This document shows, in pieces, positions 1 through 16,662 of a stretch of 16,662 bases of DNA. Below the pieces are notes generated by a model. That model made no database searches. It saw nothing but the letters and a program-made list of their open reading frames with translations, and was not told the origin of the DNA. This stretch comes from Entamoeba histolytica HM-1:IMSS (lineage: Eukaryota > Evosea > Mastigamoebida > Endamoebidae). Location of the stretch: positions 1 to 16,662 of the forward strand of contig NW_001915176.1 in the NCBI RefSeq assembly GCF_000208925.1, written 5' to 3'. Positions within the stretch are counted from its first letter, which is position 1. Every line of letters begins with the position of its first letter. The position numbers and the translations under genes were made by a program.

Positions 1-290
1 TTTTTTATAATTATTTTTTATGGTACAATTTATTATTATTATGTTAATTTGTATATTGTATATTATTATTTCTTCATTCATTTGGTTATTTATCATTTAT
101 TTATATTTTGTTTTATACCATATTCTGTTTGTAGAAAATATAATTCTTTAATTCTTTGACTATTTCATATCTAATCATTTATTCACGTTTCTCGTGTTTA
201 TAACTTATTATTCTCTCTAATATTTAAAATCACATTATTTTTATTATAATTTATTATAATTATTTATTTTTAATCAATCTAAAAGAATGA

Positions 291-308
291 AATTAGTATA
301 TACTAATT
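291..308. repeat. 18-bp perfect palindrome in left ITR
   Basis: AATTAGTAT is followed directly by ATACTAATT. The mirrored copy is at 13822-13839. It sits at the switch from T-rich to purine-rich sequence within the arm. Short palindromes are common by chance in such AT-rich DNA, so function is uncertain. Confidence 0.6.
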
Positions 309-619
309 CATTTGTGTAAATATTAGAATGGAGATTATATTTTGATTCATAACAACATAAGAATGTATAGATTTTTCATTTGAAATAAAGATAATAAATG
401 AAAAGAAATAGAAAATGGAAATAAAAAGAATGAATAATAAATAATAAATAATAAAGAAGAAATAGAATATGATTAAAAGAATAATAGAAGAATAATATAA
501 ATAATAAGAAAATAGAAGAAAATAAGACATAATGATAATAAACAAGAATTAGATATAATAAAAGAAATTAAACGATATAAAGAAGAATATAAATAATAGA
601 AATATGTCAGAAGAAGAAA

Positions 620-673
620 AAATATTAATAATTTGTGATTTTCTCCGGAGAAAATCACAAATTATTAATATTT
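620..673. repeat. 54-bp perfect palindrome, left ITR (candidate origin hairpin)
   Basis: All 27 base pairs match around the centre between 646 and 647. The core is TTTTCTCCGGAGAAAA, a small GC island in very AT-rich DNA, flanked by the arms AATATTAATAATTTGTGA and their complement. There is no spacer, so it can extrude as a hairpin or cruciform. The same palindrome is at 13457-13510. Rep-encoding viruses use hairpins as nicking or resolution sites, so this is the best origin candidate here. That role is inference. A canonical NANTATTAC loop is not present. Confidence 0.85.
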
Positions 674-699
674 CAAAATGAAATGATTATGAATGTTCT

Positions 700-830
700 A
701 AAAATAGAATGATGACGTGTAAATACGTAATAATTATTTATAGAAATAGATTTGACGTGGTAACAACTCAAATGTATTTATAGAAATAGAATGATGACGT
801 AATGAAACGTAATCAAATATAAATAGAATT
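700..830. repeat. Three-copy ~40-bp direct repeat with TGACGT (iteron-like)
   Basis: TGACGT occurs at 713-718, 753-758 and 795-800, about 40-42 bp apart. The 15-mer ATTTATAGAAATAGA precedes the second and third copies (736-750 and 776-790), and the first is preceded by the related CTAAAAATAGAATGA. A further TATAAATAGA lies at 819-828. The mirrored set is at about 13300-13430. It lies just inside the 54-bp palindrome, an arrangement like origin iterons or an enhancer. TGACGT also resembles a CRE/ATF half site and recurs before Rep (4167-4174). Confidence 0.7.
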
Positions 831-861
831 ATGGAATAGATAACACAAAAATCTAAAAAAT

Positions 862-1631
862 AGTCAGCGCAAAATCTAAAAATCTCAAATAGAAAAGTCA
901 GCTGACTAAACTGACCAAATTATTGTAAAATAATAGTAAAAATATAATAAAATATAATAAAAAATATAGTCATATATAATATATATATATATATTTTGAA
1001 CCTCAAAAAGTCAGAATATGAATAATATTGACTCACTCAATGACCATATTGGGATGAATAACATAAAATTATGAGAAAAATAAAGAAACACTAAATAGTA
1101 AATATGAAGTCGAAATAATAAATAACAAAAAAAGAATATCATAAACGTTCAATATAATATTGTAGTGGCGTATAACACAAAAGTCAGCGCAACTGAATTA
1201 TTAGATCACTGACCCCAGTATATATAGTAATGTCCATGTGGCAGGGTTGAAAATAACATTCAAATTTTTCAATTGGTGAGGAATTAGGGTGAAACAAAGG
1301 TGCAGAAATAAGAAGAAAATGTAACATAGAAACATAAAGAAGTTGAATAAACATACAAAAGTCATAGAAAAGTCAAGAAAATGATAAACATCATACCAAT
1401 GAAGAATAGAAACGAGAATTAAGAAAAAAAAAAGCAACATAGAAGCATGAAGAAGCAAAGAAACATACAAAACAAATAAACAAAAGAAAAGAAAATAGAA
1501 ATGGCATATCAATGACGGTTCGTAATAAAAATCATAATAATAAAAATATTAAATATTATACATAAAAATACGAATGTCCTATCAATTAATACGTATTACA
1601 ACGTAATACGTTATTAATAAACAAACTAAAA
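862..1631. promoter_or_regulatory. Inner ITR and leader region upstream of the kinase gene
   Basis: No convincing gene was found. GTCA/TGAC motifs are dense: GTCAGCGC at 863-870 and 1183-1190, the palindrome GTCAGCTGAC at 897-906, ACTGACC at 910-916, and CACTGACCCC near 1208. A TA-dinucleotide tract lies at 972-994. A TATATATAG box lies near 1220, followed by a purine-rich stretch to about 1500. The minus-strand open frame at 1201-1512 begins at TTG, has no early ATG and is a low-complexity hydrophobic string, so I reject it. The region probably contains Rep-binding and promoter elements for rightward transcription. Confidence 0.5.
1591..1611. repeat. Inverted repeat 20 bp before the kinase start
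   Basis: ACGTATTAC and GTAATACGT form a perfect 9-bp stem around the loop AAC. The left half resembles the CRESS nonanucleotide NANTATTAC apart from its second base. Placed 20 bp before the ATG at 1632, it could be an operator, a leader hairpin or chance. Confidence 0.5.
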
Positions 1632-2402
1632 ATGATTAAATGTTTAATGGACAATAATAATAACAATACAAATTATGAAAATAGTATCAACAACGACCAA
1701 GTATTACATTACAAATTCGGAAAGCAACACTTTTTCATTGGAGGAAGTATAGGAACGGGTAAAACCACATTAGTCAATTTAATACTTGAATATATGGATT
1801 TTTATTCACACACTGTCATTATTAAAGAATTTATTAATTATGATAAAGGAGGCGAAATCAAGTTGCATCATTTACATAATCAACTTATTAGCAACTACGA
1901 GTTTCAACAATACGTCCTCGATTGTTACGAAAAACAATTAAATTCTGAATTATACGAAGAAGCGGATTTTGTTTTATGGGTCAGACACCCAATTGAATCA
2001 CTAGAAATATTTTGTAAAAACAATGATTCGTTGTCAGTCAAAGAAAGAAACCAACTCGATTTAAGAATGAAACAAATGTGTAGAAGATACGGTATACCAA
2101 ACATCAGAGATAAAAGCGTCGCAGTGTTAAACGTAGATACATCAAGATTGTCAATTGAAATAATACAAGAAGCAATTATTAATACTTATATACATCCAGC
2201 CATGTTAGGAATTATGGAAGGAGATTTATACGTATTCTTGTTCTGCGGAGATACAGACACTCAATTTAAAAGAATCAAGAAGAGGGGAAGAACAGTAGAA
2301 TTAGAACAATATAAAAAGAAGGAAGATCTGTTTAGCTTAAACAACGTATATTATACGTTTTATTCGAATATAATAGAAGAAAAACTAAAACAGTCTAATT
2401 AA
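1632..2402 (+). CDS. Deoxynucleoside kinase (thymidine kinase-like)
   Basis: A 256-aa protein of the dNK family, which phosphorylates deoxynucleosides to monophosphates and so feeds the dNTP pool. Visible features are a Walker A loop GSIGTGKT at residues 38-45 after an Asn-rich leader, an acidic residue in the following helix region (KEFINYD, about 65-71), and WVRHPIESLEIF at about 116-127 where family members have their Glu-Arg-Ser region. A LID-type segment RIKKRGRTVE at 214-223 follows the strand DLYVFLF, a strong dNK signature, with the usual helical C-terminus. The length fits the family. The start may be Met1 or Met6; the Asn tract is in both forms. It is the first gene inside the left ITR and is followed 28 bp later by a small membrane-protein gene on the same strand. 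The substrate (dT, dC or broad) cannot be read from the sequence. Confidence 0.85.
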   Translation: MIKCLMDNNNNNTNYENSINNDQVLHYKFGKQHFFIGGSIGTGKTTLVNLILEYMDFYSHTVIIKEFINYDKGGEIKLHHLHNQLISNYEFQQYVLDCYEKQLNSELYEEADFVLWVRHPIESLEIFCKNNDSLSVKERNQLDLRMKQMCRRYGIPNIRDKSVAVLNVDTSRLSIEIIQEAIINTYIHPAMLGIMEGDLYVFLFCGDTDTQFKRIKKRGRTVELEQYKKKEDLFSLNNVYYTFYSNIIEEKLKQSN

Positions 2403-2430
2403 CTAATTATTATCATTTAATATTTACACA

Positions 2431-2586: not shown

Positions 2587-2604
2587 ATATTAATTAAAAG
2601 AGAT

Positions 2605-2922
2605 TCAATTATTTTTCTTCGGTTTAGTTTCATCACGTTGTTTATGAGAACAGTGTCTCATCACCGTTAATATTTTACCATAATCTCGTACAAAGTTCAT
2701 AGAAGTAATAGCAATATCCTCAACAAGCTCGGCTTCTTTTTCTAAAATTCGTAGATATTTCTCATCGCCTAAAGTAGAACACTGTTCCTTTTCATATAAG
2801 TTTTTTAAATCCTCGCATAATTCCTCTATACCGTCTAAATCAATGAAATAGCTAGAAAGATCTTTAACATTTAAATCACTAATATCACACGCTTCAACAC
2901 GGTCATCAACAGGAATACTCAT
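2605..2922 (-). CDS. Small acidic helical protein, unknown function
   Basis: 105 aa starting at a real ATG (2920-2922) and ending in TGA. The middle is acidic and heptad-like (DLDGIEELCEDLKNLYEK and KEAELVEDIAITSMNFV), suggesting short coiled coils. The tail is Lys-rich (KQRDETKPKKNN). No enzymatic motif is seen. It is divergent from the 101-aa gene at 3122 and converges on the 51-aa gene, with 18 bp between their stops. A TATA-like box, shared in sequence with the 164-aa gene promoter, sits 23-39 bp upstream of the ATG. Gene status is supported by balanced composition and the promoter. Function is unknown. Confidence 0.7.
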   Translation of the reverse strand: MSIPVDDRVEACDISDLNVKDLSSYFIDLDGIEELCEDLKNLYEKEQCSTLGDEKYLRILEKEAELVEDIAITSMNFVRDYGKILTVMRHCSHKQRDETKPKKNN

Positions 2923-2944
2923 TTTTATAGATAAAAAAAATATT

Positions 2945-2961
2945 CCAGTTTAAATATACAA
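2945..2961 (-). promoter_or_regulatory. Shared TATA-type core promoter for the 105-aa gene
   Basis: On the minus strand this reads TTGTATATTTAAACTGG. The identical 17 nt occurs at 4139-4155, also on the minus strand, 31-47 bp before the 164-aa gene. The embedded TATATTTAAA resembles a TATA box. Two exact copies at the same relative position before two genes make it a good promoter candidate, probably of one temporal class. Confidence 0.7.
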
Positions 2962-2991
2962 CAAATTCATCACCATAAATAAAAACGTCAT

Positions 2992-3121: not shown

Positions 3122-3427
3122 ATGAACTCTTCCCCCTACATAAAAAACGTTTTAAAAGATTTATCCAAGGAATTATCAAACATTATCAAAAGTTTATCAT
3201 CAACCAATTTGTCTCCTGAAGGAGATAGTCTAATTCATGCTATTGCCATTTGGTTGAGACGCGTCTCATTTATTAACGAATTCAATTACGATGATACGAT
3301 GCTCAATTATTTGGATTATTTAATAGCAGATGCTCAGGTATTATTAATAGATAATGAAAAACTGACAGCAATTTTAAATCAATTTAGATTTTTCTATACC
3401 AGAGAATATGCTATACACTTTAATTGA
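3122..3427 (+). CDS. 101-aa helical protein, unknown function
   Basis: Begins at ATG and ends in TGA. The sequence predicts mostly alpha helix with amphipathic stretches (KNVLKDLSKELSNIIKSL at about 9-26, DYLIADAQVLLIDNEKLTAIL at about 66-86). It has no signal peptide, transmembrane segment or catalytic motif that I recognise. It is divergent from the 105-aa gene, sharing the AAACAGACA array, and convergent with the 164-aa gene across a poly-T-rich gap. Early position near Rep suggests a regulatory or host-interaction role, but this is inference from location only. Confidence 0.65.
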   Translation: MNSSPYIKNVLKDLSKELSNIIKSLSSTNLSPEGDSLIHAIAIWLRRVSFINEFNYDDTMLNYLDYLIADAQVLLIDNEKLTAILNQFRFFYTREYAIHFN

Positions 3428-3613: not shown

Positions 3614-4108
3614 TTATTTATCTTTAGTCTCGGCTTTCTTCGGCTTCTTTTCTTCATCGGGGTATTTATTATTCTTAAGTAAAGCTCCATGTTCTTCGTC
3701 TTCATCAGCATCTTCATCTTTCCTCTTTTTAGAGTAACGTCTTACCCATTCGGGTAAATCAACTGTTTTCATCTCCTTCTTAACACCCTTAGAGAACTTC
3801 TTCTTTACCCAAGTATTGTATGCATTCAAATTGATACCGTTTTCATCCAAGAATTGGGATAAACGTTCACTACGTAAAATACTCTCAAGTTTTGATCTTA
3901 ATATACGACTTCTCTCTTCGTCATCTTCAACTTTACCCGATGAATTCAATTTCCAATCCATATAGGATGGTTCTTTCATAGTATAATACAATTTTTTAAC
4001 AAATGTATTCACTTCTGGATCACGTTGGCTTTCAATATAAACATCCGCTATATCTTTGCTCAATACTTCATAATGGATATCGTCCCTATTTCCATAAAAA
4101 TTGGTCAT
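3614..4108 (-). CDS. 164-aa charged, possibly nuclear protein
   Basis: Starts at a real ATG (4106-4108) and ends in TAA. Residues 1-120 are mixed helical. The C-terminal third is a low-complexity charged tail. A basic cluster RRYSKKRK (about residues 128-135) resembles a nuclear localisation signal. It is followed by an acidic run (DEDADEDEEH) and a Lys/Glu-rich end. No known domain was recognised. It is divergent from Rep, 145 bp apart, with the shared 17-nt TATA-type box upstream. Pairing with Rep suggests an early accessory replication or transcription factor, but this is not shown. Confidence 0.7.
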   Translation of the reverse strand: MTNFYGNRDDIHYEVLSKDIADVYIESQRDPEVNTFVKKLYYTMKEPSYMDWKLNSSGKVEDDEERSRILRSKLESILRSERLSQFLDENGINLNAYNTWVKKKFSKGVKKEMKTVDLPEWVRRYSKKRKDEDADEDEEHGALLKNNKYPDEEKKPKKAETKDK

Positions 4109-4253: not shown

Positions 4254-5930
4254 ATGTCAACAAACCAATTCTCATCCGAGCCTACCAAATTAGATTTTAT
4301 ACACCTCAACGAATCATTAAAGTCTAATAAACCACTACATTTCACCTCCAGATACCTATACCTTACACTATGGGGCGATGAAATAAAGAACAATATTCAA
4401 TTCAAGGAAGTTGTGGACAGAATGGCAGGAGCGACCAGTAACGTGCAATATGCACATATATCACCAACAGAACACGATGAAATTAATCCTCGTCCACACC
4501 AACATATGCTAATAGTATTAAAAAGACCACGTTCCTTTAAAGCCAGACCAATAATTACACATTCTGATGGAACCAGACAGACTTTCTGGTATTCCAGAGT
4601 AAATTCATATACATCACGAACAGGCGATATCTCCGCAATAATCAAATATATAACTAAGAAGGGGGAAGGGATACACCAAGGAGATCCAAATAAGAAGGAA
4701 GAATTAAAACAAACCTGGATTAACGCCCTGAACGATATGGACTCATATCGAGACTATAAAGAATTAGAACAGAATTTAATGGAGATAAATGCAGAAAAAT
4801 ATATCCAACAAGAGGGACGCATTAAAGCTCGTTGGATGAGGAAGAATGCTAGGAGAATAGACATGGAACAATACACGAAAACGGATCTACTTCCATGGAG
4901 AGAAGATATGGAGGAGATTAAAACAATCAGAAAGTGGATAAAATGTGCCTCAGGAAACAAATACCGTATGGGAAATTTATTTATTGTCGGCCCAACAAAG
5001 ACAGGGAAGACAGAATTTGCTGTCCAGGAAATTTTTATGAAATATAACACGTTTATGTTGCGCGGAGATTCCCTGTTCGATACCTATGACGATGAACAGC
5101 ATTATAGATTTATTTTATTAGACGATATTAACTATGATAAAAACACAGTACGTTTAATTAAAGCCATTACCTCAACAATAAATAAGAAGACTGTGGTAAA
5201 TATAAAATATTCAAAAGCAATCGTAACTGCAAGACCGTGCATCCATCTGCTTAATCAGAAAGAATACGAAAACGTTGTAAATTTAATGCGTGAAAATGGA
5301 GGATACTCATGGTGGAGAAGAAACTCTTTAACGGTCTTCTTAGATAAAAAGATTTATAAAGATCCACAAGAATCTGATAATCCATCAGAAGATATGCAAG
5401 AACAAGAGACTAATTATGACCCACAAAAAGACCTCGAAGAGAAATATACTGCTTTAGAAGAACAGGATGAAGATACAACCATGCAAGAGGATTATACACC
5501 AGAACATGTTTCATTCTATAGTAGAATGACAACACTCATGGCAGACCTAGGCTATGACGAAGACTTCTTAACAGAATTTAACGATAAAATAAAAGAAAAA
5601 AGAAGAAACAATCGACAATTAAAGAAAATGCTGAGAGAGTCTCAACAAGATAACGAGAGTATCCAAGAAGAATGGAACAATGATTTAGAAGAATACCAAT
5701 CAGAAAACCCCCTAGGCATGACGAAAGAAGACTTTAAGGACTTTGAAAGAGAAACTATGTCTTCATATGAAAAGCAAAGAAACAGTTACTTTGAAAAACA
5801 TATGGATTCTTCATCTGATGATTATGATGAAGATTATGATGAAGATTATGAAGACGATGTTATGAACAATCCAATGGAACACAGACCTTTCGGAGGAAAA
5901 AATGATAACATGGATATCATCTACGATTAA
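4254..5930 (+). CDS. rep: Replication initiator: HUH endonuclease + SF3 helicase
   Basis: 558 aa. It nicks an origin strand, stays attached through a tyrosine and unwinds DNA for rolling-circle or rolling-hairpin replication. Endonuclease motifs: motif I YLYLTLW (34-40), motif II PHQHMLIVL (81-89; metal-binding His82 and His84), motif III IIKYITKKG (129-137; catalytic Tyr132, Lys135). The YxxK form and compact size fit CRESS-DNA Reps. Helicase motifs: Walker A GPTKTGKT (246-253), Walker B FILLDDI (286-292), motif C region KAIVTARP (321-328), and an arginine finger WWRRN (353-357). Motif C lacks the usual Asn (TAR where many have TSN). Beyond ~365 there is an unusual ~190-residue acidic, partly coiled-coil tail with a repeated DYDED stretch (523-534). 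The total is well above the usual CRESS Rep length. Divergent from the 164-aa gene and convergent with the 824-aa gene. Confidence 0.92.
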   Translation: MSTNQFSSEPTKLDFIHLNESLKSNKPLHFTSRYLYLTLWGDEIKNNIQFKEVVDRMAGATSNVQYAHISPTEHDEINPRPHQHMLIVLKRPRSFKARPIITHSDGTRQTFWYSRVNSYTSRTGDISAIIKYITKKGEGIHQGDPNKKEELKQTWINALNDMDSYRDYKELEQNLMEINAEKYIQQEGRIKARWMRKNARRIDMEQYTKTDLLPWREDMEEIKTIRKWIKCASGNKYRMGNLFIVGPTKTGKTEFAVQEIFMKYNTFMLRGDSLFDTYDDEQHYRFILLDDINYDKNTVRLIKAITSTINKKTVVNIKYSKAIVTARPCIHLLNQKEYENVVNLMRENGGYSWWRRNSLTVFLDKKIYKDPQESDNPSEDMQEQETNYDPQKDLEEKYTALEEQDEDTTMQEDYTPEHVSFYSRMTTLMADLGYDEDFLTEFNDKIKEKRRNNRQLKKMLRESQQDNESIQEEWNNDLEEYQSENPLGMTKEDFKDFERETMSSYEKQRNSYFEKHMDSSSDDYDEDYDEDYEDDVMNNPMEHRPFGGKNDNMDIIYD

Positions 5931-5938
5931 GAAAAAAA

Positions 5939-5956
5939 AAATAAATTAATTTATTT
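5939..5956. terminator. Bidirectional polyadenylation-type palindrome
   Basis: The 18-bp palindrome AAATAAATTAATTTATTT lies across the 20-bp gap between the Rep stop (5930) and the 824-aa gene stop (5951). It provides AATAAA on both strands (plus 5940-5945), economically ending the convergent early and late units. The minus-strand signal overlaps the TAA stop. Confidence 0.55.
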
Positions 5957-8425
5957 CTTTTTATCTTTCACCATTGATACTTTTGTTATTTTTCTCGGTT
6001 TCACTGTTTTATCCTTCTTCAATGCATCTTCCCATGCATGTTTATTGATACGTTCCATAGTACGTTTTAGTATTAAATTGTTTCTTTTCGATGCACTCAC
6101 ACGCTTTTCATATTGTCCAATTTCATCGGCCTCAATCATGTTATACACGCCTCTGGGAATAGATTCAGTAATATGCCCATTAATATCAACAACTTCTCTT
6201 TCATTTTCTGGATTATCATAATATTTCTTTACTCGTTCTTTTATTCTTCTTCTAGCTTCTTTGTACCACTTCTCATAATCATATTCATTATAAGATGAAC
6301 GCATCAAATCATTTGTCTTCTGTCTATAATCTGAAGCAATGGGAATAGCATCATATTTAGGTTCAATTTTATGTCTACCCATTATTTCATATCCACGATT
6401 TCTTTCTCTCGGTGTAAATGTTTCATCTCCACGTTTGTCAAATCCGGAATTTGAATCAGAAGAAATATCATCTCTTATCATTCTTTTTCTGGGTTGTATT
6501 ACACTCTCAGAAACATAAGAATCTGCACCACCACGTACGGAAAAACTCTGAGCATATTCAACAAAATCATTAATATTTATACCATTTCGTTCAGCTAATT
6601 TATTTGCAATAATCTTAGCACCCGCATTTCTATTATCATTCCAAGAACCTCGTAATTTATCAAAATCATGAGAAGCAACATCCAATTTATAACGAATTTC
6701 ATCAACATTAGACTTATCATCCATAATACCACTCAAAACCATCATCATACTTTCGTGGAAATTTTGCATATCATTAACAGGAACAACATATTCAGCATTA
6801 AAAGACTGAGCAATATTTTCAAATTGTTTCATAATTGCATTAACATTACTTATTACATCTTTATATTGTGCACCTCGAACTTCGTTATCTTTTATATACT
6901 TATTAACATCTTTAAAACGAGAAATTAATAATTGGCGAGTATTTTCAAATGCCTTTTTACTCTGTCTCATATCCGGATCATCACTATAAAATTGTTCTTC
7001 TCCTGCATTTATTATTTGTCCCCTCTTTTTATATGAATTCATATCGTTTTGTATACTATTCACCAAACTTATTACACGAGTAATTTCTTCCGTTTTACCA
7101 CTACCAATTTTATGTATTGATGAATTAAGAGCTTTCACTTCACTCTCAAGTATTCTCATTCTTCTAGTGAAATTAGCGGGTTCTCTTTCTTCCAATAAAT
7201 CTTTAAGTAAATCATTTAATGGTATTTTCATATGTTCAGGTAATCTATTAACAACATCAAAAACATTTTTCCATTCTTCTGATTTCTTTTCTAATTTATC
7301 AAGACGTTCTGTATATAAATTGACCTTATCTGTAACAGCATCGAGTTGTTTCAATGAAAATCGGTTCTGTTCAGCAAGTCTTGAATCAATATCCTTAATA
7401 ATTCCTTCTTGTTTCTTTACATAATCATTAATTTGTCCTAATAAAGCATTTACATCATTTCGATTATATGTATTAGGTAATGTCTGATCAAACCACTTAG
7501 CAGCATCATTAACATCCAATTTAGTCCTATAAAGTAATTGTATTTCTTTTTGAAGTTGGTTTTTATATAATTCCAAATCTGCTCTAACAGCATTTAAATT
7601 CTCTGGACTTATTGTATTCAAATGTCTAAATTGAGAATTTAAATCATCATATTGTTTAGAAAATACCATTCCCATATTCCGATAAGCATTAGATAGATTC
7701 TGTAATTCATTCTCAAAAGCAGGATATTTATCAATTAATCCTCTCATGACATTAACTCGTTCTTCGATATTTTGTAATCTGGAACCTTGTTTTTCAATTA
7801 GAGGTTCATAGAAATCTCTGAAAGCATTTAACTCTGCACGAGTAACAAATATCTCATTATTCCTTTCAATTTGAGATACACGACGTTTCAATACCGAATT
7901 TTGTTCCGTGAGATCCCTTATTTGAGTACGAACATTACGAGGAACAAAATCACCAAATTGTAATTTTAATTCATTGATCTTATTCACATTTTCATTTATC
8001 AATTCTCTATTTTCACGAACCAAATCTTCAACTGTAACAAATCGTTCAGCATTTTGTTTATATTTTTTAATTGCAGACTCTAAACGTTCAATATGATGAA
8101 CATTTTTAAGATTATCCTGTTGAGCACGTAGAATAGCTCTATACAGACTTTTATTATCATCATCAATCTTTTTCTGTCGTTTATTATTCTCTTTATAAAA
8201 ACTACCTTCTTCACCTAATCGTTTATCTAATTCCCTACTAACTATATTTTGAAGAGATTCATCTGGAAGTGGTGGATTATAAGGTCTTCCACCAAATTGA
8301 TAAAACTGTTGTTCATTATCAATGGGTTGTTTATCATATTGTCTGGAAACATACTTTCCAGCACTATTATAATAACGGTTATTTCGTTTGTTATAACTAT
8401 ATTGTCTTCTCCTTCGTCTCCACAT
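5951..8425 (-). CDS. Large Arg-rich coiled-coil structural protein candidate
   Basis: 824 aa from the first ATG (8423-8425); the codon before it is TTG, so I do not start earlier. The N-terminus is a basic run (MWRRRRRQYSYNKRNN) like the nucleic-acid-binding arms of CRESS capsid proteins. There is a Pro-rich patch near residues 50-56. Long heptad-rich coiled coil covers about residues 60-460 with breaks (e.g. KRRVSQIERNNEIFVTRAEL), with shorter helices to about 620. A Gly-Gly then Ser/Arg-rich linker lies around 640-690, and the C-terminus is very basic. No enzymatic motif was recognised. It is the last gene of the minus-strand structural cluster, 26 bp after capsid 2. A core, genome-condensing or scaffold protein is plausible. 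It has no counterpart I know in small CRESS viruses. Confidence is high for the gene and low for the role. Confidence 0.85.
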   Translation of the reverse strand: MWRRRRRQYSYNKRNNRYYNSAGKYVSRQYDKQPIDNEQQFYQFGGRPYNPPLPDESLQNIVSRELDKRLGEEGSFYKENNKRQKKIDDDNKSLYRAILRAQQDNLKNVHHIERLESAIKKYKQNAERFVTVEDLVRENRELINENVNKINELKLQFGDFVPRNVRTQIRDLTEQNSVLKRRVSQIERNNEIFVTRAELNAFRDFYEPLIEKQGSRLQNIEERVNVMRGLIDKYPAFENELQNLSNAYRNMGMVFSKQYDDLNSQFRHLNTISPENLNAVRADLELYKNQLQKEIQLLYRTKLDVNDAAKWFDQTLPNTYNRNDVNALLGQINDYVKKQEGIIKDIDSRLAEQNRFSLKQLDAVTDKVNLYTERLDKLEKKSEEWKNVFDVVNRLPEHMKIPLNDLLKDLLEEREPANFTRRMRILESEVKALNSSIHKIGSGKTEEITRVISLVNSIQNDMNSYKKRGQIINAGEEQFYSDDPDMRQSKKAFENTRQLLISRFKDVNKYIKDNEVRGAQYKDVISNVNAIMKQFENIAQSFNAEYVVPVNDMQNFHESMMMVLSGIMDDKSNVDEIRYKLDVASHDFDKLRGSWNDNRNAGAKIIANKLAERNGININDFVEYAQSFSVRGGADSYVSESVIQPRKRMIRDDISSDSNSGFDKRGDETFTPRERNRGYEIMGRHKIEPKYDAIPIASDYRQKTNDLMRSSYNEYDYEKWYKEARRRIKERVKKYYDNPENEREVVDINGHITESIPRGVYNMIEADEIGQYEKRVSASKRNNLILKRTMERINKHAWEDALKKDKTVKPRKITKVSMVKDKKK

Positions 8426-8450: not shown

Positions 8451-8460
8451 TCAATTAGAG
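8451..8460 (-). promoter_or_regulatory. Candidate late motif before the 824-aa gene
   Basis: On the minus strand, CTCTAATTGA lies 25-35 bp before the ATG and overlaps the capsid 2 stop codon. A related (T)TAATTGA box precedes capsid 2 and the 354-aa fibre gene, suggesting each structural gene has its own small promoter despite the tight packing. Confidence 0.35.
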
Positions 8461-9408
8461 ATTAACATTATGTTCTGGCAATCCATCATTTGGTATTACC
8501 AACCCACCGTTAGAATATGCATTGTTAGCATTATCATAAACAGTCTCAGGATTAATTGATGGAGCAAATCCATTAGCAATAGCTCCAACTAAAATATACG
8601 GAGGTTGAGCATTAGGAATATTACTAGGTACAACAAGTCCATTATTATTACGAGCATAACCAATAAACCCGGCATAAGGTTTGAATGAATTTTCATCAGT
8701 AACAAGTACTTTTCTCAAACCTCTCAATGTAACATCAAATTGCCAATGAATAGTAAGAGTACAAGCATTGGCAACATTAACAGCTTGAGGAGTTTTTATA
8801 GCGATAAGTAATTGAGGATTCCATGCACTATACATATTATCCATACTAAGTACATCTCTAGTATTAGTTGTTGGTAAATACATAGACTTTTCCATCATAG
8901 ATGCTGCATCTAATTGTCTCACTACTCCCCATCTACTACCATAATACAATGTCTTTTCATTTGCACTAGAATAAGAAGAAACAGAAGAATAAGCAGGTAA
9001 TTGGAAATATCTCGTATTATTAATAACAGCAGTATTAATTCTAACACCATTACGATCCCATGCCGTACATATAGAAGGGAATGTCGCACTATTTAACAAC
9101 TGATTTCCAATGAATGTCATTTCCATGGATGCTCTGACAGCATTTAACTTGAATTGATCATACATTCCCATATAATTATGAAAATATTGTGTAGAAGTCA
9201 TCAAAGCAGTGACATTCCTCAACATTGTACCTTCATTTGCACCAACCGGAACATTAATAGAAACATCCTCTTGCATACTAATAACTACATTAGTACTATC
9301 TCGTTGCTGCATAGCACTCGCGAAATTACCAAATGCCTGCCGCTTCAAAGTTGTACGTTTTTTATAACCTCTTCTTGGATAATTACGTCTACTAACACGT
9401 CGTTGCAT
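8455..9408 (-). CDS. Capsid protein 2 (CRESS-type jelly-roll candidate)
   Basis: 317 aa from the first ATG (9406-9408); the open frame extends upstream only through a TTG codon. The N-terminal ~25 residues are strongly basic (RRVSRRNYPRRGYKKR), typical of ssDNA-virus capsid arms that bind the genome and enter the nucleus. Then come strand-rich segments with CRESS-capsid hallmarks: MYDQFKLNAVRASMEM (82-97), TAWDRNG (115-121) and WQFDVTLRGLR (222-232) near the expected end of the jelly roll. A Gly/Asn/Pro-rich tail of ~70 residues follows. The size is close to ordinary CRESS capsids. It is the third open frame of the minus-strand cluster. It is probably a shell-forming protein; whether it or the 447-aa protein is the major one is unknown. 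Confidence 0.8.
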   Translation of the reverse strand: MQRRVSRRNYPRRGYKKRTTLKRQAFGNFASAMQQRDSTNVVISMQEDVSINVPVGANEGTMLRNVTALMTSTQYFHNYMGMYDQFKLNAVRASMEMTFIGNQLLNSATFPSICTAWDRNGVRINTAVINNTRYFQLPAYSSVSSYSSANEKTLYYGSRWGVVRQLDAASMMEKSMYLPTTNTRDVLSMDNMYSAWNPQLLIAIKTPQAVNVANACTLTIHWQFDVTLRGLRKVLVTDENSFKPYAGFIGYARNNNGLVVPSNIPNAQPPYILVGAIANGFAPSINPETVYDNANNAYSNGGLVIPNDGLPEHNVNL

Positions 9409-9441: not shown

Positions 9442-9831
9442 CTAATTAAAGAGTGATATAGTCTTTGAAAGTAATGAAGTAACATTACCGCAAAAATCGA
9501 CAACTTTATCACCTGCGACTTTCCTCAACCCACCAATTAAGACAGATTCCAAAGCATCTCGACCAGCACTCAAATACGTATTATTATCAATAAACTCCAT
9601 ACCTTCAGAAATACCAGTATAAGCATATCCTACCAACACTTTAGCGGTATTATAACCAGGTACAGCATCAGAAATGACACTTTCAACTAATGGACCAATT
9701 ACATTCTTAACTCCCTTTTTAACCATATTACATGCATAAGAAGTAATACCCGTTCCTTCAGCAAGAGAGCCAAGAGTCAAGAAAGTATCAACTGGAATGT
9801 TTTCAACACCATATCGTTTCAATGCATCCGT
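9442..9831 (-). CDS. In-frame extension of capsid 1 beyond a single TAG
   Basis: This open frame of 129 codons plus a TAG stop lies in the same frame as the 447-aa capsid gene, directly after its TAG stop. No ATG exists in the first ~36 codons: the nearest upstream candidate is TTG (9820-9822), and the first ATG is 32 codons further in. The sequence is protein-like from its start (ENIPVDTFLTLGSLAEGTG), Gly/Ala/Val-rich and moderately hydrophobic, with possible amphipathic helices (KNVIGPLVESVISDAVPG). No family was recognised. Options are stop-codon readthrough giving a minor C-terminally extended capsid protein, non-AUG start, a shorter product from the internal Met, or a sequencing error or nonsense mutation in one long gene. 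Similar extensions often mediate entry or genome release in other viruses, but nothing here proves that. Confidence 0.55.
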   Translation of the reverse strand, partial: TDALKRYGVENIPVDTFLTLGSLAEGTGITSYACNMVKKGVKNVIGPLVESVISDAVPGYNTAKVLVGYAYTGISEGMEFIDNNTYLSAGRDALESVLIGGLRKVAGDKVVDFCGNVTSLLSKTISLFN

Positions 9832-9834
9832 CTA
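9832..9834 (-). other. Single TAG between two in-frame open frames
   Basis: The codons around it are GAG TCA TAG ACG GAT. TAG is a stop elsewhere (the end of the extension at 9442-9444), and no in-frame TAG occurs in the other long genes, so codon reassignment is unlikely. The context does not match the well-known leaky signals (TAG-CARYYA, TAG followed by G plus a pseudoknot). Confidence 0.6.
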
Positions 9835-11175
9835 TGACTCTCCATCACCACGTTCAATAACAAACCCACTAACACCATCCTGAACAAATTGTCCTAAACC
9901 ATTTAACGAAATTACACTGTCATGAGATGCAACCTCACCAGTCGTTGGATTTCTCCAAGATGACTGACAACGAACAAAATTATATGCTTCAACAATCTCA
10001 AGAGGAGATGAACGCAATTGCTTAAATCTCACTGTAATATACCCCATAATTTTCATAATATATGAACCATCAGTCTCAACAGTGGTATTGTCTGCAAGTG
10101 CCTGTTTATATGCCTCCTCAAAAACTCCAGCATCTGCTCCCTCAAATCCTCCAACTACAATCCCTCGTCTAACATGGACTTTTATTTTCACATTATCGAG
10201 AATAACATCCTGTAAATCGACATTGGCATTACTTAAAATAATTTCCTCTTCCTCTTGTGGTATTCCTTGATTACTAGTCCATGAAATACCACCATCATCA
10301 ATAAAAGAAAGAGCATCTGTAATATCACCAGCACCAGTAGGAAGAGTAGCTTTAGCACCATACATAATAAAAGGGAAAAAACGTCCATTTTGATTCTCTG
10401 GAATAAATTTATATAACTTTCCTGCCATCATAGTAGGTGTTGTCATCATTTTTTCACTAGAAGACACACCAGCAACATCAAGTGATAGATGTAAACTAGC
10501 ACCAGGCAACTTGCTCTGATATATAAAAGAAGAATAAGAAGAAAGAACATCAAAACTAGGTTCTACATATGAAACACCAGTAGGACTTGGAGTAAAAAAA
10601 CCAGGAGGAACAGTACGACGACTAGCTAAACCATAAACAGTTGGAAAACTGAGCACCTGTGTGGCAATTACTGCTCCATTTGCACTGGTTTCTGGTTTTC
10701 CAATATAAAAATTCGTATTATAATAAATAATAAAATCTCCAGCTCTTCTGTCAGAGAAAAATTCCTTATTAATATCAGCTAATAATTCAGCCGCAGTAAT
10801 ATCCCTCCAATTTGTTCCATTATCTGTACTTACTTGAAGTGAAAGACTCTTTATAAAACATACTTTGAAATTCATTAATGTAGATACTCCTTTACTAACA
10901 TCACCACAAATATGAACATCCATAATTTTAAATTGATCAAAACAATCACACATTTCTATAAATTGTCTAGAACCAGCAAGCATGGATAAAATCGAAATGG
11001 TGTGAACATCACTGTAATCTCTTCCCCCATTATGTCTCATTGCACCTTTCCATTCAGTTGACACTGGAATAGTAACAGTAAGCTCTTGTCTCTGATTACG
11101 TTTTGCAATATCGACATTGACTTTAGCTGGTCCATATTTCTTGTGTTTAAATGTTGAATTAGATGAAAAAGACAT
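9832..11175 (-). CDS. Capsid protein 1 (larger jelly-roll candidate)
   Basis: 447 aa starting at a real ATG (11173-11175). After a modest basic N-terminus (HKKYGPAKVNVDIAKRNQR) it is beta-rich. CFDQFKIMDVHICGDV (78-93) parallels the YDQFKLNAV element of capsid 2, and GYITVRFKQLRSS (378-390) parallels the WQFDVTLRGLR strand. Between them it is far longer than ordinary CRESS capsids, with inserted surface-loop-like Gly/Ser/Pro/Thr-rich stretches. This suggests an ancient duplication with loop growth, or two capsids acquired separately. It heads the minus-strand structural cluster and is divergent from the 208-aa fibre gene with only 40 bp between start codons. It ends in TAG with open frame beyond. 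Confidence 0.78.
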   Translation of the reverse strand: MSFSSNSTFKHKKYGPAKVNVDIAKRNQRQELTVTIPVSTEWKGAMRHNGGRDYSDVHTISILSMLAGSRQFIEMCDCFDQFKIMDVHICGDVSKGVSTLMNFKVCFIKSLSLQVSTDNGTNWRDITAAELLADINKEFFSDRRAGDFIIYYNTNFYIGKPETSANGAVIATQVLSFPTVYGLASRRTVPPGFFTPSPTGVSYVEPSFDVLSSYSSFIYQSKLPGASLHLSLDVAGVSSSEKMMTTPTMMAGKLYKFIPENQNGRFFPFIMYGAKATLPTGAGDITDALSFIDDGGISWTSNQGIPQEEEEIILSNANVDLQDVILDNVKIKVHVRRGIVVGGFEGADAGVFEEAYKQALADNTTVETDGSYIMKIMGYITVRFKQLRSSPLEIVEAYNFVRCQSSWRNPTTGEVASHDSVISLNGLGQFVQDGVSGFVIERGDGES

Positions 11176-11215: not shown

Positions 11216-11842
11216 ATGAACACGGAAGTGAGTATAAAAGACCTAATAAACACTTGTAATATCCTTCAAATGAATCAATACGACATTGTATTGGAAAAAG
11301 AAACAATAACTCTAAAAGATATACCAAGCTTACTTGTAATAAACAGAATAAAACTGACAGGAATTAATCCAGACAATGACGAAAAACAAATACAAATAAA
11401 TGAACAACCAACTAATCATAAAATCATAACATCTGAAAAGGGTAACACTCAAACATGGCAATCTCTAAACATTCCAACTTCAACTGTGACATTTCTAACA
11501 ATGGAAGATGACGATGAACATGAAATAATGATTACAGAAGGAAGTGGAATACTCTATGTAATAATGAGCTTCGACTTGAAAACACACACAATCCATTTCG
11601 GTGCATACGAAAATCAATGGTTCAATATCACACCTCAAAAAAACATAATAATATTTCCTTATAGATTAAATTATAATGATTCAACTAAACGTTTATTATT
11701 AACATTAGAAAGCGGGGGAAGAGAACAAAACTCGGACCAGCAATTCATTGAAATAGACTTGGAAATTAATGGAGGAATATCAGCAGTTTCTCCCGGTCTT
11801 TTTGATGAAATTTGGAATAAATACTTCAACAAGGAAGTTTAA
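11216..11842 (+). CDS. Fibre/spike-like protein 1 (short paralogue)
   Basis: 208 aa. Its N-terminus (MNTEVSIKDLINTCN, then ITLKDIPSL) aligns with that of the downstream 354-aa protein (METEINLTNLIKTCN, then IILTNIPDL), fixing the ATG at 11216. The C-terminal half also corresponds: TWQSLNIP (80-87) parallels SWSELNIP, followed by strand-rich sequence. The repeat shaft of the larger protein is missing, leaving anchor and head. There is no signal peptide or transmembrane segment. It opens the plus-strand late pair, divergent from capsid 1. A role as receptor-binding or vertex protein is inferred from the repeat type in its partner and its location. Confidence 0.72.
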   Translation: MNTEVSIKDLINTCNILQMNQYDIVLEKETITLKDIPSLLVINRIKLTGINPDNDEKQIQINEQPTNHKIITSEKGNTQTWQSLNIPTSTVTFLTMEDDDEHEIMITEGSGILYVIMSFDLKTHTIHFGAYENQWFNITPQKNIIIFPYRLNYNDSTKRLLLTLESGGREQNSDQQFIEIDLEINGGISAVSPGLFDEIWNKYFNKEV

Positions 11843-11891: not shown

Positions 11892-12956
11892 ATGGAAACA
11901 GAGATAAACCTAACAAACCTCATAAAAACATGCAATAAATCAAACCAAAATTCACTTGAAATAATTTATGAGAAAGAAAAAATTATTCTAACAAATATAC
12001 CAGATTTGGAAACAAAACAGTCAATAAATACTATAACTCTATCTTCTTATATAACACAGAATGGAAATTATACAATTCAAACACCAACTGATTATGATGG
12101 AATAAAAGAAGTAAACCTCAAAGTCGATGTACCTCCTAAAACAGAAGATATGTTAGTAAAATTGATAAACCAGAACGGTCAACAAACCTTCTTACCAGAA
12201 CCAAATCATACCTTCAGTCATGTTTCAATAACAACAGATGTCAACCCTCCTCTTCAAACACTGACATATACATTTACAAATAACGGAAATTACCTTCTTA
12301 AACCAGACGAAAATCATTACGGATTAAATGCCGTCAATGCATCAATAAATGTACAACCTGCACTACAAACAAAAGACATAACAATACAAGAAAACACGAC
12401 AACAACTTACACTCCGGATTCAAATTACTACGGGTTTTCAAAAATTACCATAACCACGAACATCCCAGAAGAAAAACATACATTCAATAAATTATATTAT
12501 TCAAATGGAACCACAACCTCTCCAATTAACTATCCTACTAACATAATAGACCTTCCTACAAACACAGAAGAAGCTAGTTGGTCAGAACTCAACATTCCTT
12601 ACTCTGAAGAAACAACACTCGTAAAATCTAGTCATACACTTAGACCGTTTTATATAACTCTACCAAGTTCTAAAAGCTGCCTTTCGTTAAAATTCGCAAA
12701 TAATGGGAAATTAGAACCCCGATTCATATTTGAAGGAGAAATCTTCTTAGCTGCGGGGGAAAAGGCATTACTTGTTCCAATACTCGTCGCTAATGCAATA
12801 AATTGGGGCAGCATATTCTTTATAGCATCGAACTCTGATGACGAAATGGCACAACAAGAAGATTCATTGAAAATAGCACTCAGAAAAGATACAGCAGCAT
12901 ATTCATATTTGCCAACTTCACTTTTCTCAAACCGCTGGAAAGCACTAGGTAATTAA
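11892..12956 (+). CDS. Fibre/spike-like protein 2 with four beta repeats
   Basis: 354 aa. The N-terminal ~45 residues match fibre 1 and may anchor it. Then come four ~36-residue repeats at about 47-82, 87-120, 121-156 and 157-193. They follow the pattern NGNYTIQTPTDYDGIKEVNL...VDVPP: an N-G-x-Y/T start, a Pro, an aromatic-rich turn (YDG, HYG, YYG), then alternating V/I strands closing with Pro. This pattern is known from phage tail-fibre-like and bacterial surface proteins, so its presence in a putative eukaryotic virus is notable. From about 228 (ASWSELNIP) a C-terminal globular domain shares its start with fibre 1. There is no signal peptide. It was probably formed by duplication of one fibre gene with gain or loss of the repeat shaft. 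A role in host recognition is inferred. Confidence 0.78.
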   Translation: METEINLTNLIKTCNKSNQNSLEIIYEKEKIILTNIPDLETKQSINTITLSSYITQNGNYTIQTPTDYDGIKEVNLKVDVPPKTEDMLVKLINQNGQQTFLPEPNHTFSHVSITTDVNPPLQTLTYTFTNNGNYLLKPDENHYGLNAVNASINVQPALQTKDITIQENTTTTYTPDSNYYGFSKITITTNIPEEKHTFNKLYYSNGTTTSPINYPTNIIDLPTNTEEASWSELNIPYSEETTLVKSSHTLRPFYITLPSSKSCLSLKFANNGKLEPRFIFEGEIFLAAGEKALLVPILVANAINWGSIFFIASNSDDEMAQQEDSLKIALRKDTAAYSYLPTSLFSNRWKALGN

Positions 12957-13136
12957 ATTCTTTTGTGAATAATTTAATGTTGTCATTTGTACAGGAAAAT
13001 AAGAGTGAAATAACAACCAAAGGGAAGTGCATGTAACGATTTCCTGATAACTGATAACATTAAATCGAGCAAAAGAAATCAATAAATTGTGTTATTCAAC
13101 ACACTTTAGTCAGAGAGTGTTTCATAAATAATTCAA
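12957..13136. other. Short gene-free spacer between fibre 2 and right ITR
   Basis: No open frame of note. It contains CTGATAACTGATAAC (a small direct repeat) near 13043 and a weak ACACT/AGTGT stem around a GTCAG near 13101-13120. It is much shorter than the corresponding left spacer (1015-1631). Confidence 0.4.
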
Positions 13137-13157
13137 CACTGACTTTTGAGGTTCAAA

Positions 13158-13256
13158 ATATATATATATATATTTATACTGACTATATATTTTTATTATA
13201 TTTTATAATATTTTTATTATAATTTTACTATAAATTTGGTCAGTGAGTCAGCTGAC
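13158..13256. promoter_or_regulatory. TA tract and GTCAGCTGAC cluster, right ITR
   Basis: A TA-dinucleotide tract (about 13158-13173) is followed by ACTGACT near 13178, GGTCAG near 13238 and the palindrome GTCAGCTGAC at 13247-13256. This mirrors the left arm (TA tract 972-994, palindrome 897-906) with small indels. Conservation of the GTCAGCTGAC palindrome despite divergence around it suggests a binding site. Confidence 0.5.
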
Positions 13257-13299
13257 CTTTCTATCTTTATTTTTTAGATTTTTTTGTTATCTATTCCAT

Positions 13300-13430
13300 A
13301 ATTCTATTTATATTTGATTACGTTTCAATACGTCATCATTCTATTTCTATAAATACATTTGAGTTGTTACCACGTCAAATCTATTTCTATAAATAATTAT
13401 TACGTATTTACACGTCATCATTCTATTTTT
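13300..13430. repeat. Mirror copy of the TGACGT ~40-bp repeats
   Basis: Reverse-complement partner of 700-830, with ACGTCA at 13412-13417, 13372-13377 and 13330-13335. It differs from the left copy at 13328 (the partner of 802). Orientation points towards the fibre-gene end of the coding region. Confidence 0.7.
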
Positions 13431-13456
13431 AGAACATTCATAATCATTTCATTTTG

Positions 13457-13510
13457 AAATATTAATAATTTGTGATTTTCTCCGGAGAAAATCACAAATT
13501 ATTAATATTT
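13457..13510. repeat. 54-bp perfect palindrome, right ITR
   Basis: Identical to the palindrome at 620-673, centred between 13483 and 13484. Because it is palindromic, it reads the same on both arms. Its exact conservation at the same distance from the repeat axis argues for a functional replication or resolution element. Confidence 0.85.
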
Positions 13511-14129
13511 TTTCTTCTTCTGACATATTTCTATTATTTATATTCTTCTTTATATCGTTTAATTTCTTTTATTATATCTAATTCTTGTTTATTATCATTA
13601 TGTCTTATTTTCTTCTATTTTCTTATTATTTATATTATTCTTCTATTATTCTTTTAATCATATTCTATTTCTTCTTTATTATTTATTATTTATTATTCAT
13701 TCTTTTTATTTCCATTTTCTATTTCTTTTCATTTATTATCTTTATTTCAAATGAAAAATCTATACATTCTTATGTTGTTATGAATCAAAATATAATCTCC
13801 ATTCTAATATTTACACAAATGAATTAGTATATACTAATTTCATTCTTTTAGATTGATTAAAAATAAATAATTATAATAAATTATAATAAAAATAATGTGA
13901 TTTTAAATATTAGAGAGAATAATAAGTTATAAACACGAGAAACGTGAATAAATGATTAGATATGAAATAGTCAAAGAATTAAAGAATTATATTTTCTACA
14001 AACAGAATATGGTATAAAACAAAATATAAATAAATGATAAATAACCAAATGAATGAAGAAATAATAATATACAATATACAAATTAACATACTAATAATAA
14101 ATTGTACCATAAAAAATAATTATAAAAAA

Positions 14130-16662
14130 GAAATAAATAAAAATAAGAAAATAAATATTTCATAAATTAAAATATATTAAAAAAGCAAAAAGAAACATGA
14201 TAAATTTAATCAAATAAATAGACATTATAAAGAAGTAAATAAATAAACAAATAGAATAAATTTCATAATATTGAATAAATTGAATAAATAAAATAAATTA
14301 TATATTTCAAAAGAAGAAAATCAAAAATAATTTGTTCAATAAATATAAATAATAATAATAATCATAAATAAATATAATTTTATTAATTCTTTATAATTTT
14401 ATAAATAATTTAATGAATTAATAATATTTAATATTTTATCTATGTAAATAATATAATAATGTAACAATTTACAAATAAAATAAAAATATATTTAAATATT
14501 CTTTTCATTCATTATTTCATATTAACAAATAAAATAAATATTTTAATAAATATTAATATTTAATTCTTTTTATAAAATAAATTCTATGTTTATTTTTTAA
14601 ATAAATATTTTAATTTATAACTCTTCTTATTTATTTCTTATTTTTCATATAAATTATTTATTCAATTATTCTATAGAAATATTAATATTATTTATAATAT
14701 TTTATTCGATTCATATATTAGTTTATACTAAACATATTTATTTTATTATTCATCTATCAGAATTAATTATTAATTTAAAATTGTTTTATATAAATATTAA
14801 TAATAAAATTAAAAATGAAATAAAACTTTTATTTATTATCAATAAAATATATTAATTATTATGTTTCAAAACAAACATCTTCTATATGATATTTAACTGC
14901 TATTACATCTATTATTTTAATATCAAATAGATTATTTCTTCTATTCTATATAGATTCTTATATTCATCAAAATGATTATAACATTATTTCATTAATTCTT
15001 TCATATTCTTGTTAACAATATCTTTCTCAATTATTTCATATGGTATTTTGATTCAAAACACTTCTATTAATCTTCTTATTTCTTTATTAATTAATCTTCT
15101 TATTCTTATTACAAATACTAATTATCATTACTTTTATCATTCTATTCTCTTGAATTTTCATAATTTATATCTTACATGTTCATTTTATTCATAAATATTA
15201 TATTTATATTGCAATTTCTTACATTTATCATATCTATGATACGTGATATTTGTTCATTGAACATATCATATAAATGTCTAGTATTTTATTGAACTTCATT
15301 TATTCTTTATTCATATTTTCACTATGCTTCATTACTATTATCTCTTCTTTTCTACTCTTCTTATGTTATCTTTTTTTCGTTTGTATTTTCCCTTTATTCT
15401 TTTTCTCAGTTGATTTATTATTTTATTTTGAAATAATTTGTATTTAATTCTTAATTCTCTCAAAATATATTCATCTATTAAGTCATGTTTTCCATCTGAT
15501 TTTTCTTTGTTACAATTACACTTTAATATTATATATTTGATAATTGTTGTTTTATCATATAATTAACACAATGATAATATTTTATTATATTTCATTGTAC
15601 TTTCATTCTTCCTGAATCACCTTTACCTGTTCTTATCATTTTCTTTGTATATTTATTAATTTCATTATTTTATTTGTAATTTCTTTAATTGCCATATAAC
15701 TATTAAAATTGTTTCTATTTTGCTTACTTTGATTCTTCTTTTTCCAATTCTTCAAACTAATATTGTTTGAATATATTCTTTATATATTTAATACTCATAT
15801 TTATTTGTTTTTTCATATTCTCTTTATTGTCTTTTTTATTTATTCTCTTTCTTCAAACACTATCAAATATATTCATTAATCACTTTTCTTTCTTTTGATT
15901 TATTTCATCTCATTATTTAAATGTAAATTGCATTATTCTTCTATTATATTCTAATCATTATTTATCTTTAAATATTATTATTCAATATTAATTCTTCTCT
16001 TTTTAACATATAATCTTACTATACATTTTCTTTCTTTTTCACGTGTGTTTTATAAATCTCTTTTCTTATTATTTATTCTATTTTGATTAATTTTATTATA
16101 TTCAATTTAATTAAAAATGATTAATAAATGAATAATTTGATTGATTCTGTATTGATTCTTCATATATAACTTTTCTTACTACATTATTCTTATTTATATT
16201 TTCTATTAATTTAATAATGTCATATTGCTTTCTTCTTGATACTTTCTTTACCATTATTCTTTTTGAATTGGAATATTCATAATTATTTCTATGACTGATC
16301 TTCATCTAGTATTTGTATTTCATTCATATTATCTGATGTTGTTATGTTCATAATTCTAATTAATCAAAATTCGTTGGTATTAATTTCCGTTCAAATTCAA
16401 TTTATTATATTTATTACTTTATTATGTACCATTTCAATGCATTTTTATTTATTATCTTCAGTTCATCAATATATAACACATTTATACTTTTTATCAAATA
16501 TTTTGGTTCTATATAATATTTCAAAAAGAATATTCACATTGAAGATAAATAATAAAGATGATAATGAATCAAAATGAACGATACAATATGTAAATTTAAT
16601 ATCTCTAATTCATTCTTATAATCCTATCTTATTTTTATTCTCTATTGATTGTTTATATTTTT
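14130..16662. other. Gene-free, extremely AT-rich terminal region
   Basis: A-rich to about 14420, then largely T/C on the plus strand with few G. Open frames up to 77 codons (e.g. 16344-16577 and 15009-15194) are low-complexity Ile/Phe/Leu/Tyr/Ser strings and are rejected. It directly continues the right ITR and has no partner in this window. It is most simply the rest of a longer ITR whose left copy was not assembled. It could instead be a unique segment of a circular molecule or host flanking DNA. Confidence 0.6.
15221..15277. repeat. Nested inverted repeats (possible branched hairpin)
   Basis: ACATTTAT (15221-15228) pairs with ATAAATGT (15270-15277). Inside are TATCATA/TATGATA (15226-15232 and 15235-15241) and TGATAT..GTTCA/TGAAC..ATATCA (15244-15268). 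Part of the first inner hairpin overlaps the outer stem, so not all pairs can form at once. Such a three-way shape would recall terminal hairpins of linear ssDNA viruses, but chance pairing in AT-rich DNA is a real alternative. Confidence 0.35.

What the first reader, a model, noticed from the sequence alone, without database searches (positions are those of the whole stretch)
1..16662. A ~17-19 kb virus with a CRESS-type Rep: a possible new lineage of large Rep-encoding DNA viruses
Seen: one HUH + SF3 Rep with YxxK, two jelly-roll-like capsid genes with the YDQFK and VTLRGLR-type elements, a kinase, fibre paralogues and long inverted repeats, with no polymerase gene. Known: CRESS-DNA genomes are typically circular and a few kb. 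Parvoviruses are linear but about 4-6 kb. Inference: this is a CRESS-derived virus that grew a late/early gene programme and a complex particle.
Basis: partly seen in the sequence, partly recalled or inferred. Interest (0 to 1): 0.92.

Follow-up and report, generated by a model that had tools for sequence, protein, structure and literature searches.

The report
Large Rep-encoding provirus in dysentery amoeba
This 16.7-kb contig, very likely from the dysentery amoeba Entamoeba histolytica, carries a predicted CRESS-type replication gene, a predicted circovirus-like capsid gene and a predicted nucleoside kinase gene between long inverted repeats, and is likely one member of an undescribed lineage of unusually large Rep-encoding DNA viruses.

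Summary
The window is a whole 16,662-bp contig of a 16.95-Mb assembly. Its Rep matches an E. histolytica HM-3:IMSS protein at 99.8-100%. Rep has HUH and SF3 motifs and a low-confidence predicted CRESS-Rep fold; the capsid is a predicted single jelly-roll, and 16 of 23 relatives hit Circo_capsid below its cut-off. Five contigs carry the same ten genes in one order between inverted repeats, so chimerism is unlikely. A second family of about 10 kb shares the plan.

(2) The repeats hold origin-like palindromes: 54 bp here, T-shaped AAV-like hairpins in both orientations in the second family.

Particles, termini and integration state are not shown; the second-capsid call is weak. Rep-like genes in Entamoeba were known; my searches found no report of this large element.

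The parts
1..1066 (.). Left arm of the inverted repeat (cut by the contig end)
   Evidence: 94.8% to 14129-13087; 3 mismatches in the outer 862 nt
13087..15471 (.). Right arm of the inverted repeat, the part shared with C72 (to 15219), C88 and C86
15472..16662 (.). Outer sequence shared at 99% with C88 (582 nt, to its end) and C56 (1,183 nt); C86 instead has a host repeat here. Either more inverted repeat or flanking DNA
620..673 (.). 54-bp perfect palindrome, left arm; candidate Rep origin or hairpin
   Evidence: folds with z -10.7
13457..13510 (.). 54-bp perfect palindrome, right arm
696..813 (.). Iteron-like repeats (TGACGT / ACGTAAT) beside the left palindrome
   Evidence: (D7-D9); the block varies between arms (55 of 135 columns)
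13317..13434 (.). Iteron-like repeats beside the right palindrome
1632..2402 (+). Predicted deoxynucleoside kinase, 256 aa
   Evidence: PF01712 E 4e-11; full-length ORF in 4 of 5 contigs
2605..2922 (-). 105-aa protein found in both families
3122..3427 (+). 101-aa conserved protein
3614..4108 (-). 164-aa conserved protein
4254..5930 (+). Rep, 558 aa, HUH endonuclease and SF3 helicase
5951..8425 (-). 824-aa protein with an arginine-rich N-terminus; presumed structural or internal virion protein; no Pfam family
8455..9408 (-). Main capsid protein, 317 aa, predicted single jelly-roll
9442..9726 (-). C-terminal part of the interrupted ~577-aa protein
9832..11175 (-). N-terminal 447 aa of the interrupted ~577-aa protein; weak candidate for a second capsid protein
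11216..11842 (+). 208-aa presumed fibre protein
11892..12956 (+). 354-aa presumed fibre protein, N-terminus paralogous to the 208-aa one

Best explanation
This contig is likely most of a linear provirus or episome of a large CRESS-Rep DNA virus whose host is very likely Entamoeba histolytica. Shown by the calls: a Rep with HUH and SF3 motifs, a predicted single-jelly-roll capsid, a predicted deoxynucleoside kinase and presumed structural genes lie in one order between inverted repeats in five contigs. Inferred mechanism: Rep would bind the iterons and nick or melt the palindrome inside each inverted repeat; host polymerase would copy the genome by a rolling-circle or rolling-hairpin scheme that also keeps the two repeats of one molecule alike; the kinase would raise the dNTP supply in a host that lacks ribonucleotide reductase; the jelly-roll protein, helped by the ~577-aa and 824-aa proteins, would build a particle larger than a T=1 shell; the fibre-like proteins would bind the amoeba. 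Copies sharing a cell would exchange the whole capsid-side module while keeping their own old Rep-side module.
For: Motifs and fold of Rep. Capsid model and Circo_capsid hits. Same ten genes and order in 5 of 5 family A contigs and a related plan in family B. Purifying selection on capsid-side genes, dN/dS 0.00-0.18. Arms of one contig are nearly identical from 400 nt outward: 0 of 1,688 (C72), 0 of 504 (C49), 1 of 667 (C82), 2 of 1,603 (C88). In the listed matches the arm occurs at 92% or more only at the ten ends of the five contigs (40 of 409 candidates scored). Palindrome in 10 of 10 arms, one with a symmetric pair of changes. T-shaped hairpins in both orientations in family B. E. histolytica lacks ribonucleotide reductase (passages).
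Against: No free molecule, terminus or particle is shown. The window's copy has an interrupted ~577-aa gene, one sister has a stop in Rep and one a stop in the capsid gene, as in endogenous copies. One sister abuts a repetitive host sequence, and a family A-type Rep is reported on a 131-kb contig (P0018), which speaks for integration of some copies. Palindromes lie inside, not at the ends of, the shared repeats, unlike AAV. The 54-bp palindrome is no better conserved than the sequence just outside it. The Rep model is of low confidence, its helicase part matches unrelated AAA+ ATPases nearly as well, and no sequence search tied Rep to a named CRESS family above a cut-off.
Confidence: 0.68

Rival explanations
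1. It is a decaying endogenous element or transposon-like repeat of Entamoeba chromosomes, of viral origin but no longer a virus.
For: Interrupted genes in three of five contigs; C86 abuts a host repeat with 35 other near full-length copies among 40 of 433 candidates scored; P0018 lies on a 131-kb contig; the inverted repeats are of a length similar to those of the ERE1 repeat.
Against: Capsid-side dN/dS of 0.00-0.18, near-identical arms, each of the ten genes open in at least 3 of 5 contigs, many diverse capsid relatives in unnamed sources.
Confidence: 0.22
2. It is a linear plasmid-like replicon that uses a viral Rep and keeps capsid-like genes for another use.
For: Palindromic origins, arms alike within a molecule, nearly no joins to host DNA seen.
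Against: The capsid is the most conserved gene (dN/dS 0.00-0.04) and is kept in two families and in 65 database proteins.
Confidence: 0.08
3. Chimeric assembly of a small CRESS element with unrelated amoebal DNA.
For: Rep-side and capsid-side halves have different histories.
Against: Five contigs join the same halves at the same point although the Reps are only about 68-72% identical; family B has a related plan.
Confidence: 0.02

Closest known systems
Entamoeba-associated CRESS viruses (2020; Naryaviridae and Nenyaviridae, names recalled)
   Same: CRESS Rep and capsid; Entamoeba hosts; integrated copies known (PMC7493932, section read)
   Different: Those are circular genomes of about 2 kb (size recalled) with Rep and Cap; this is 16.7 kb or more with ten genes and inverted repeats
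Large CRESS viruses of Tisza et al. 2020 (PMC7000223, passages)
   Same: CRESS Rep with capsid duplications or several structural genes
   Different: Circular; eight genomes over 6 kb are reported; no linear inverted repeats or kinase mentioned in the passages seen
Redondovirus (Vientovirus) Rep
   Same: Best PDB Foldseek match of the Rep model (9pqq, E 1.4e-9); hosted by oral Entamoeba according to PMC10094137 (search listing only)
   Different: About 3-kb circular genomes (recalled); tied with or below geminivirus and parvovirus Reps by VIA-align
Parvoviruses, AAV
   Same: Linear inverted repeats, T-shaped hairpins in two orientations (family B), HUH-SF3 Rep
   Different: 4-6 kb, hairpins at the very ends (recalled); no Parvo_NS1 hit here; here 1-3 kb of shared sequence lies outside the palindromes
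Adomaviruses with CressRep (PMC11071296, passages)
   Same: 9-20 kb with a CRESS-type Rep and several structural genes
   Different: Circular, defined by Penton and Cah genes; the capsid here is a single jelly-roll
ERE1 repeat of E. histolytica (PMC2657916, sections 13 and 14 read)
   Same: AT-rich, inverted repeats of 2,221 bp, same host species
   Different: 7,160 bp with one 369-aa ORF and 777 fragments; the sequences were not compared

Membership tests
Cressdnaviricota | Rep with HUH (HxH, YxxK) and SF3 (Walker A and B) motifs | tested here: met
   H82, H84, Y132, GKT and DD invariant in 14 of 14
Cressdnaviricota | Rep fold of the CRESS type | tested here: met
Cressdnaviricota | Rep placed among CRESS Reps by sequence or tree | tested here: inconclusive
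   Only weak Pfam hits (PF23343 in 7 of 14 members, best E 1.4e-4; Gemini_AL1_M and RNA_helicase in 1 of 14 each); no named CRESS family reached
Cressdnaviricota | Single jelly-roll capsid | tested here: met
   16 of 23 relatives hit Circo_capsid below its cut-off, the window's own does not; RNA-virus capsids score equally
Cressdnaviricota | Circular ssDNA genome | tested here: inconclusive
   Contigs end in inverted repeats; termini and strandedness not seen
Small Entamoeba CRESS viruses (Naryaviridae and kin) | Genome of about 2 kb with Rep and Cap only | tested here: not met
   Ten genes on 16.7 kb
Parvoviridae | NS1 of the Parvo_NS1 family | tested here: not met
   No PF01057 hit in the Rep or 13 relatives
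Parvoviridae | Terminal hairpins in flip and flop | tested here: inconclusive
   T-shaped hairpins in two orientations in family B, but not at contig termini; family A has a simple 54-bp palindrome
Bidnaviruses, polintons, virophages | Protein-primed PolB gene | tested here: not met
   No polymerase family hit among ten ORFs
Adomaviruses | Penton and Cah genes | not tested
   No structural model of the other proteins was made
ERE1 repeats | 2,221-bp inverted repeats around a 369-aa ORF | not testable with these tools
   The ERE1 consensus is not in the text read

The most novel reading that the evidence does not exclude
Gut amoebae carry a deep, unnamed lineage of linear, 10-20 kb viruses that join a CRESS Rep and circo-type capsid to parvovirus-like hairpin origins in inverted repeats, swap whole capsid modules between co-resident genomes, and are candidates for the genome of the ~70-nm polyhedral E. 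histolytica virus seen in 1972, for which a 2023 review lists no genome.
Probability: 0.32. Interest if true: 0.93.

Novelty: new variant of a known kind. Interest (0 to 1): 0.82.

Why it matters
CRESS viruses are thought to be kept small by their T=1 shells (passages of PMC7000223). A CRESS-Rep element of 16.7 kb or more with a kinase, several presumed structural proteins and inverted repeats would show how such viruses outgrow that limit and would narrow the gap to parvoviruses. E. histolytica has had a described polyhedral 70-nm virus since 1972 whose genome a 2023 review leaves blank (passage); these elements give sequences to test against it. A nucleoside kinase in a virus of a host without ribonucleotide reductase is a simple, testable dependence. 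The module swap is a natural experiment on which genes of such viruses travel together.

Tried and rejected
Relatives in IMG/VR: none for the Rep, the capsid profile or a family B Rep. PDB by sequence: nothing useful for Rep, capsid, ~577-aa protein or kinase (one search lists wheat dwarf virus Rep at E 0.45). Phage collection for the two fibre-like proteins tried: none; a phage origin of their repeats is a recalled lead with weak PHROG hits only (best E 8e-5, unknown function). The idea that each Rep lineage has its own origin (incompatibility groups) is not favoured: palindrome and most iterons are the same in four of five contigs although their Reps are about 68-72% identical. A search with the Rep alignment reached no named CRESS family. 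Chimeric assembly was rejected. Chromosomal or episomal state was not settled. Families that VIA-align does not list were not read as excluded.
Full report
What the window is. The window is the whole of contig C82 (16,662 bp) of a 16.95-Mb, 392-contig assembly. Its Rep matches the E. histolytica HM-3:IMSS protein KM1_201220 at 100% or 99.8%, so the host is very likely E. histolytica; an rRNA check did not complete. All contigs whose length I saw are above 11 kb, so short junction contigs may be missing.

Not a chimera but a family. Five contigs (C82, C72, C88, C86, C49; 14.4-16.8 kb) carry all ten genes in one order, some of them interrupted. A second family (B) has Reps about 24-28% and capsids 36-39% identical to the window's, with a fibre-like protein, a 286-aa protein and two basic proteins of up to about 500 aa; 9 contigs carry a B-type Rep match and 6 of them also a capsid match. 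In the protein database the Rep has 22 hits including its own cluster: 16 named as E. histolytica (6), E. dispar (8) or E. nuttalli (2), and 6 unnamed. The capsid has 65 hits: 7 named Entamoeba, 58 unnamed; 53 of the unnamed are 50-68% identical, on contigs up to 28 kb, presumably gut metagenomes. No relative was found in IMG/VR; one 33% capsid relative lies on a 5.4-kb contig filed in a bacterial MAG.

Mosaic history. Capsid-side genes (5951-12956) are about 90-99.7% identical to the window's in the sister contigs; Rep-side genes (1632-5930) are 31-82% identical. Identity to the four sisters is 46-77% in 100-column windows between 5367 and 5948 and 83-99% from 5949 to 6698: the change falls at the convergent junction of the Rep and 824-aa genes. 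Pairwise dN/dS: capsid 0.00-0.04 (6 pairs; C49 left out, interrupted), part of the 824-aa gene 0.07-0.09 (3 pairs; C72 and C49 left out, cut by piece ends), part of the ~577-aa gene 0.03-0.17 (10 pairs), fibres 0.04-0.18 (16 pairs; C49 left out of the 208-aa gene). Rep dN is 0.19-0.23 with saturated dS in 6 of 6 pairs (C72 left out, interrupted); dS of the other Rep-side genes is 0.66 or more, or saturated. In the Rep tree of 25 rows three of the five contigs have a close partner in another species: the window with E. dispar EDI_273450 (88%, support 100/100), C72 with EDI_192730 (87%, 100/98) and C49 with E. nuttalli ENU1_093150 (96.5%, 100/100); C88 and C86 pair only with E. histolytica proteins. 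The best E. dispar capsid is only 74% identical. So some Rep modules look older than the host species while one capsid module has spread among the copies of one host; how is inference, and transfer between amoeba species is not excluded.

Inverted repeats and origins. From 400 nt outward the two arms of one contig differ at 0 of 1,688 (C72), 0 of 504 (C49), 1 of 667 (C82), 2 of 1,603 (C88) and 11 of 820 (C86) positions; the inner 200-400 nt differ more; arms of different contigs differ at 6 of 1,690 (C72-C88) and 19 of 1,681 (C82-C72). This fits copying of one end from the other within a molecule; if the elements are integrated it would date C86 as oldest. In the listed matches the arm occurs at 92% or more only at the ten ends of the five contigs (40 of 409 candidates scored). 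A 54-bp perfect palindrome is in 10 of 10 arms, nine identical and one with a symmetric pair of changes. It has 2 variable columns of 54, no fewer than the sequence just outside it; the iteron-like block beside it varies more (55 of 135 columns). In family B the corresponding place holds a palindrome of about 170-180 nt with two short side arms that folds into a T (z -13.9, -17.7 and -15.7 for the three of four that I folded, trimmed to 146-150 nt; a different C189 palindrome gave z -8.1 and one long stem). Four of these T-hairpins are in the assembly (up to 3 mismatches, control 0): on C123 both read the same way, on C69 they are opposite, so the left end occurs in both orientations, like flip and flop in AAV (recalled); n is four. 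Shared sequence lies outside the palindromes: about 1.7 kb in both arms of C72, 2.5 kb common to C82 and C88, about 1 kb in family B.

Mechanism. Shown: genes, motifs, selection, repeats, palindromes. Inferred: Rep acts at the palindrome, host polymerase copies the DNA by a rolling-circle or rolling-hairpin scheme, the kinase feeds dNTP pools, the structural genes build a particle. E. histolytica has no ribonucleotide reductase according to two papers (passages). A 2023 review lists an unassigned polyhedral 70-nm E. histolytica virus of 1972 without genome data (passage); the link is speculation, and the 1972 paper itself was not held.

Known work. Rep-like sequences in Entamoeba are known: 14 in E. 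histolytica HM-1 (passages of PMC3198968). Kinsella et al. 2020 called an E. dispar and a Giardia contig the only known parasite elements with both Rep and Cap (section 7 read). Tisza et al. 2020 reported eight CRESS genomes over 6 kb and capsid duplications (passages). Lorenzi et al. 2008 described ERE1 (sections read). Nine literature searches on this topic listed no report of a large Rep-capsid element in Entamoeba; they cover open-licence papers only and I read listings. UniRef already names some of the proteins 'Capsid protein' or 'Replication-associated'.

Verdict. Size, gene set and CRESS-type Rep are real; 'virus' is likely but unproven; the module mosaic and the hairpin palindromes are the most interesting new facts. 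It works like a CRESS virus by Rep and capsid; formal membership stays open because circularity and sequence-level placement are inconclusive.

Noticed in passing
C86:1-999 (L030): A host repeat, with 35 other near full-length copies (93-96%) among 40 of 433 candidates scored, abuts the inverted repeat of this sister element.
   Followed up: partly
C56 (L046): Contig that starts with the window's outer 1.18 kb at 99% and runs on into AT-rich DNA without ORFs of 90 aa that resembles parts of C335.
   Followed up: partly
C11 (L043): A family B element whose outer repeat joins the interior directly at about 1173, as in an internal-deletion derivative.
   Followed up: no
C335 (L041, L042): A B-type Rep without a capsid match on a 72.9-kb contig, near a GH25 glycosyl hydrolase gene and a reverse-transcriptase ORF: a chromosomal setting.
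   Followed up: partly
C123 (L034): Family B element near a tRNA-Leu gene and masked stretches, flanked on the left by a repeat shared with C335; a tRNA array is a recalled guess.
   Followed up: partly
L047:1-5452: Contig in a 'Bacillales' MAG with a capsid 33% identical to the window's and a long protein with repeats like those of the family B fibre: a third lineage, probably misbinned.
   Followed up: partly
P0022: A 31% Rep relative on a 14.7-kb contig of unnamed source, the deepest family A-type Rep found; its contig could not be read here.
   Followed up: no
window 1-862 and 13268-14129: the repeat finder prints 100% for arms that have 3 mismatches in 862 nt.
   Followed up: yes
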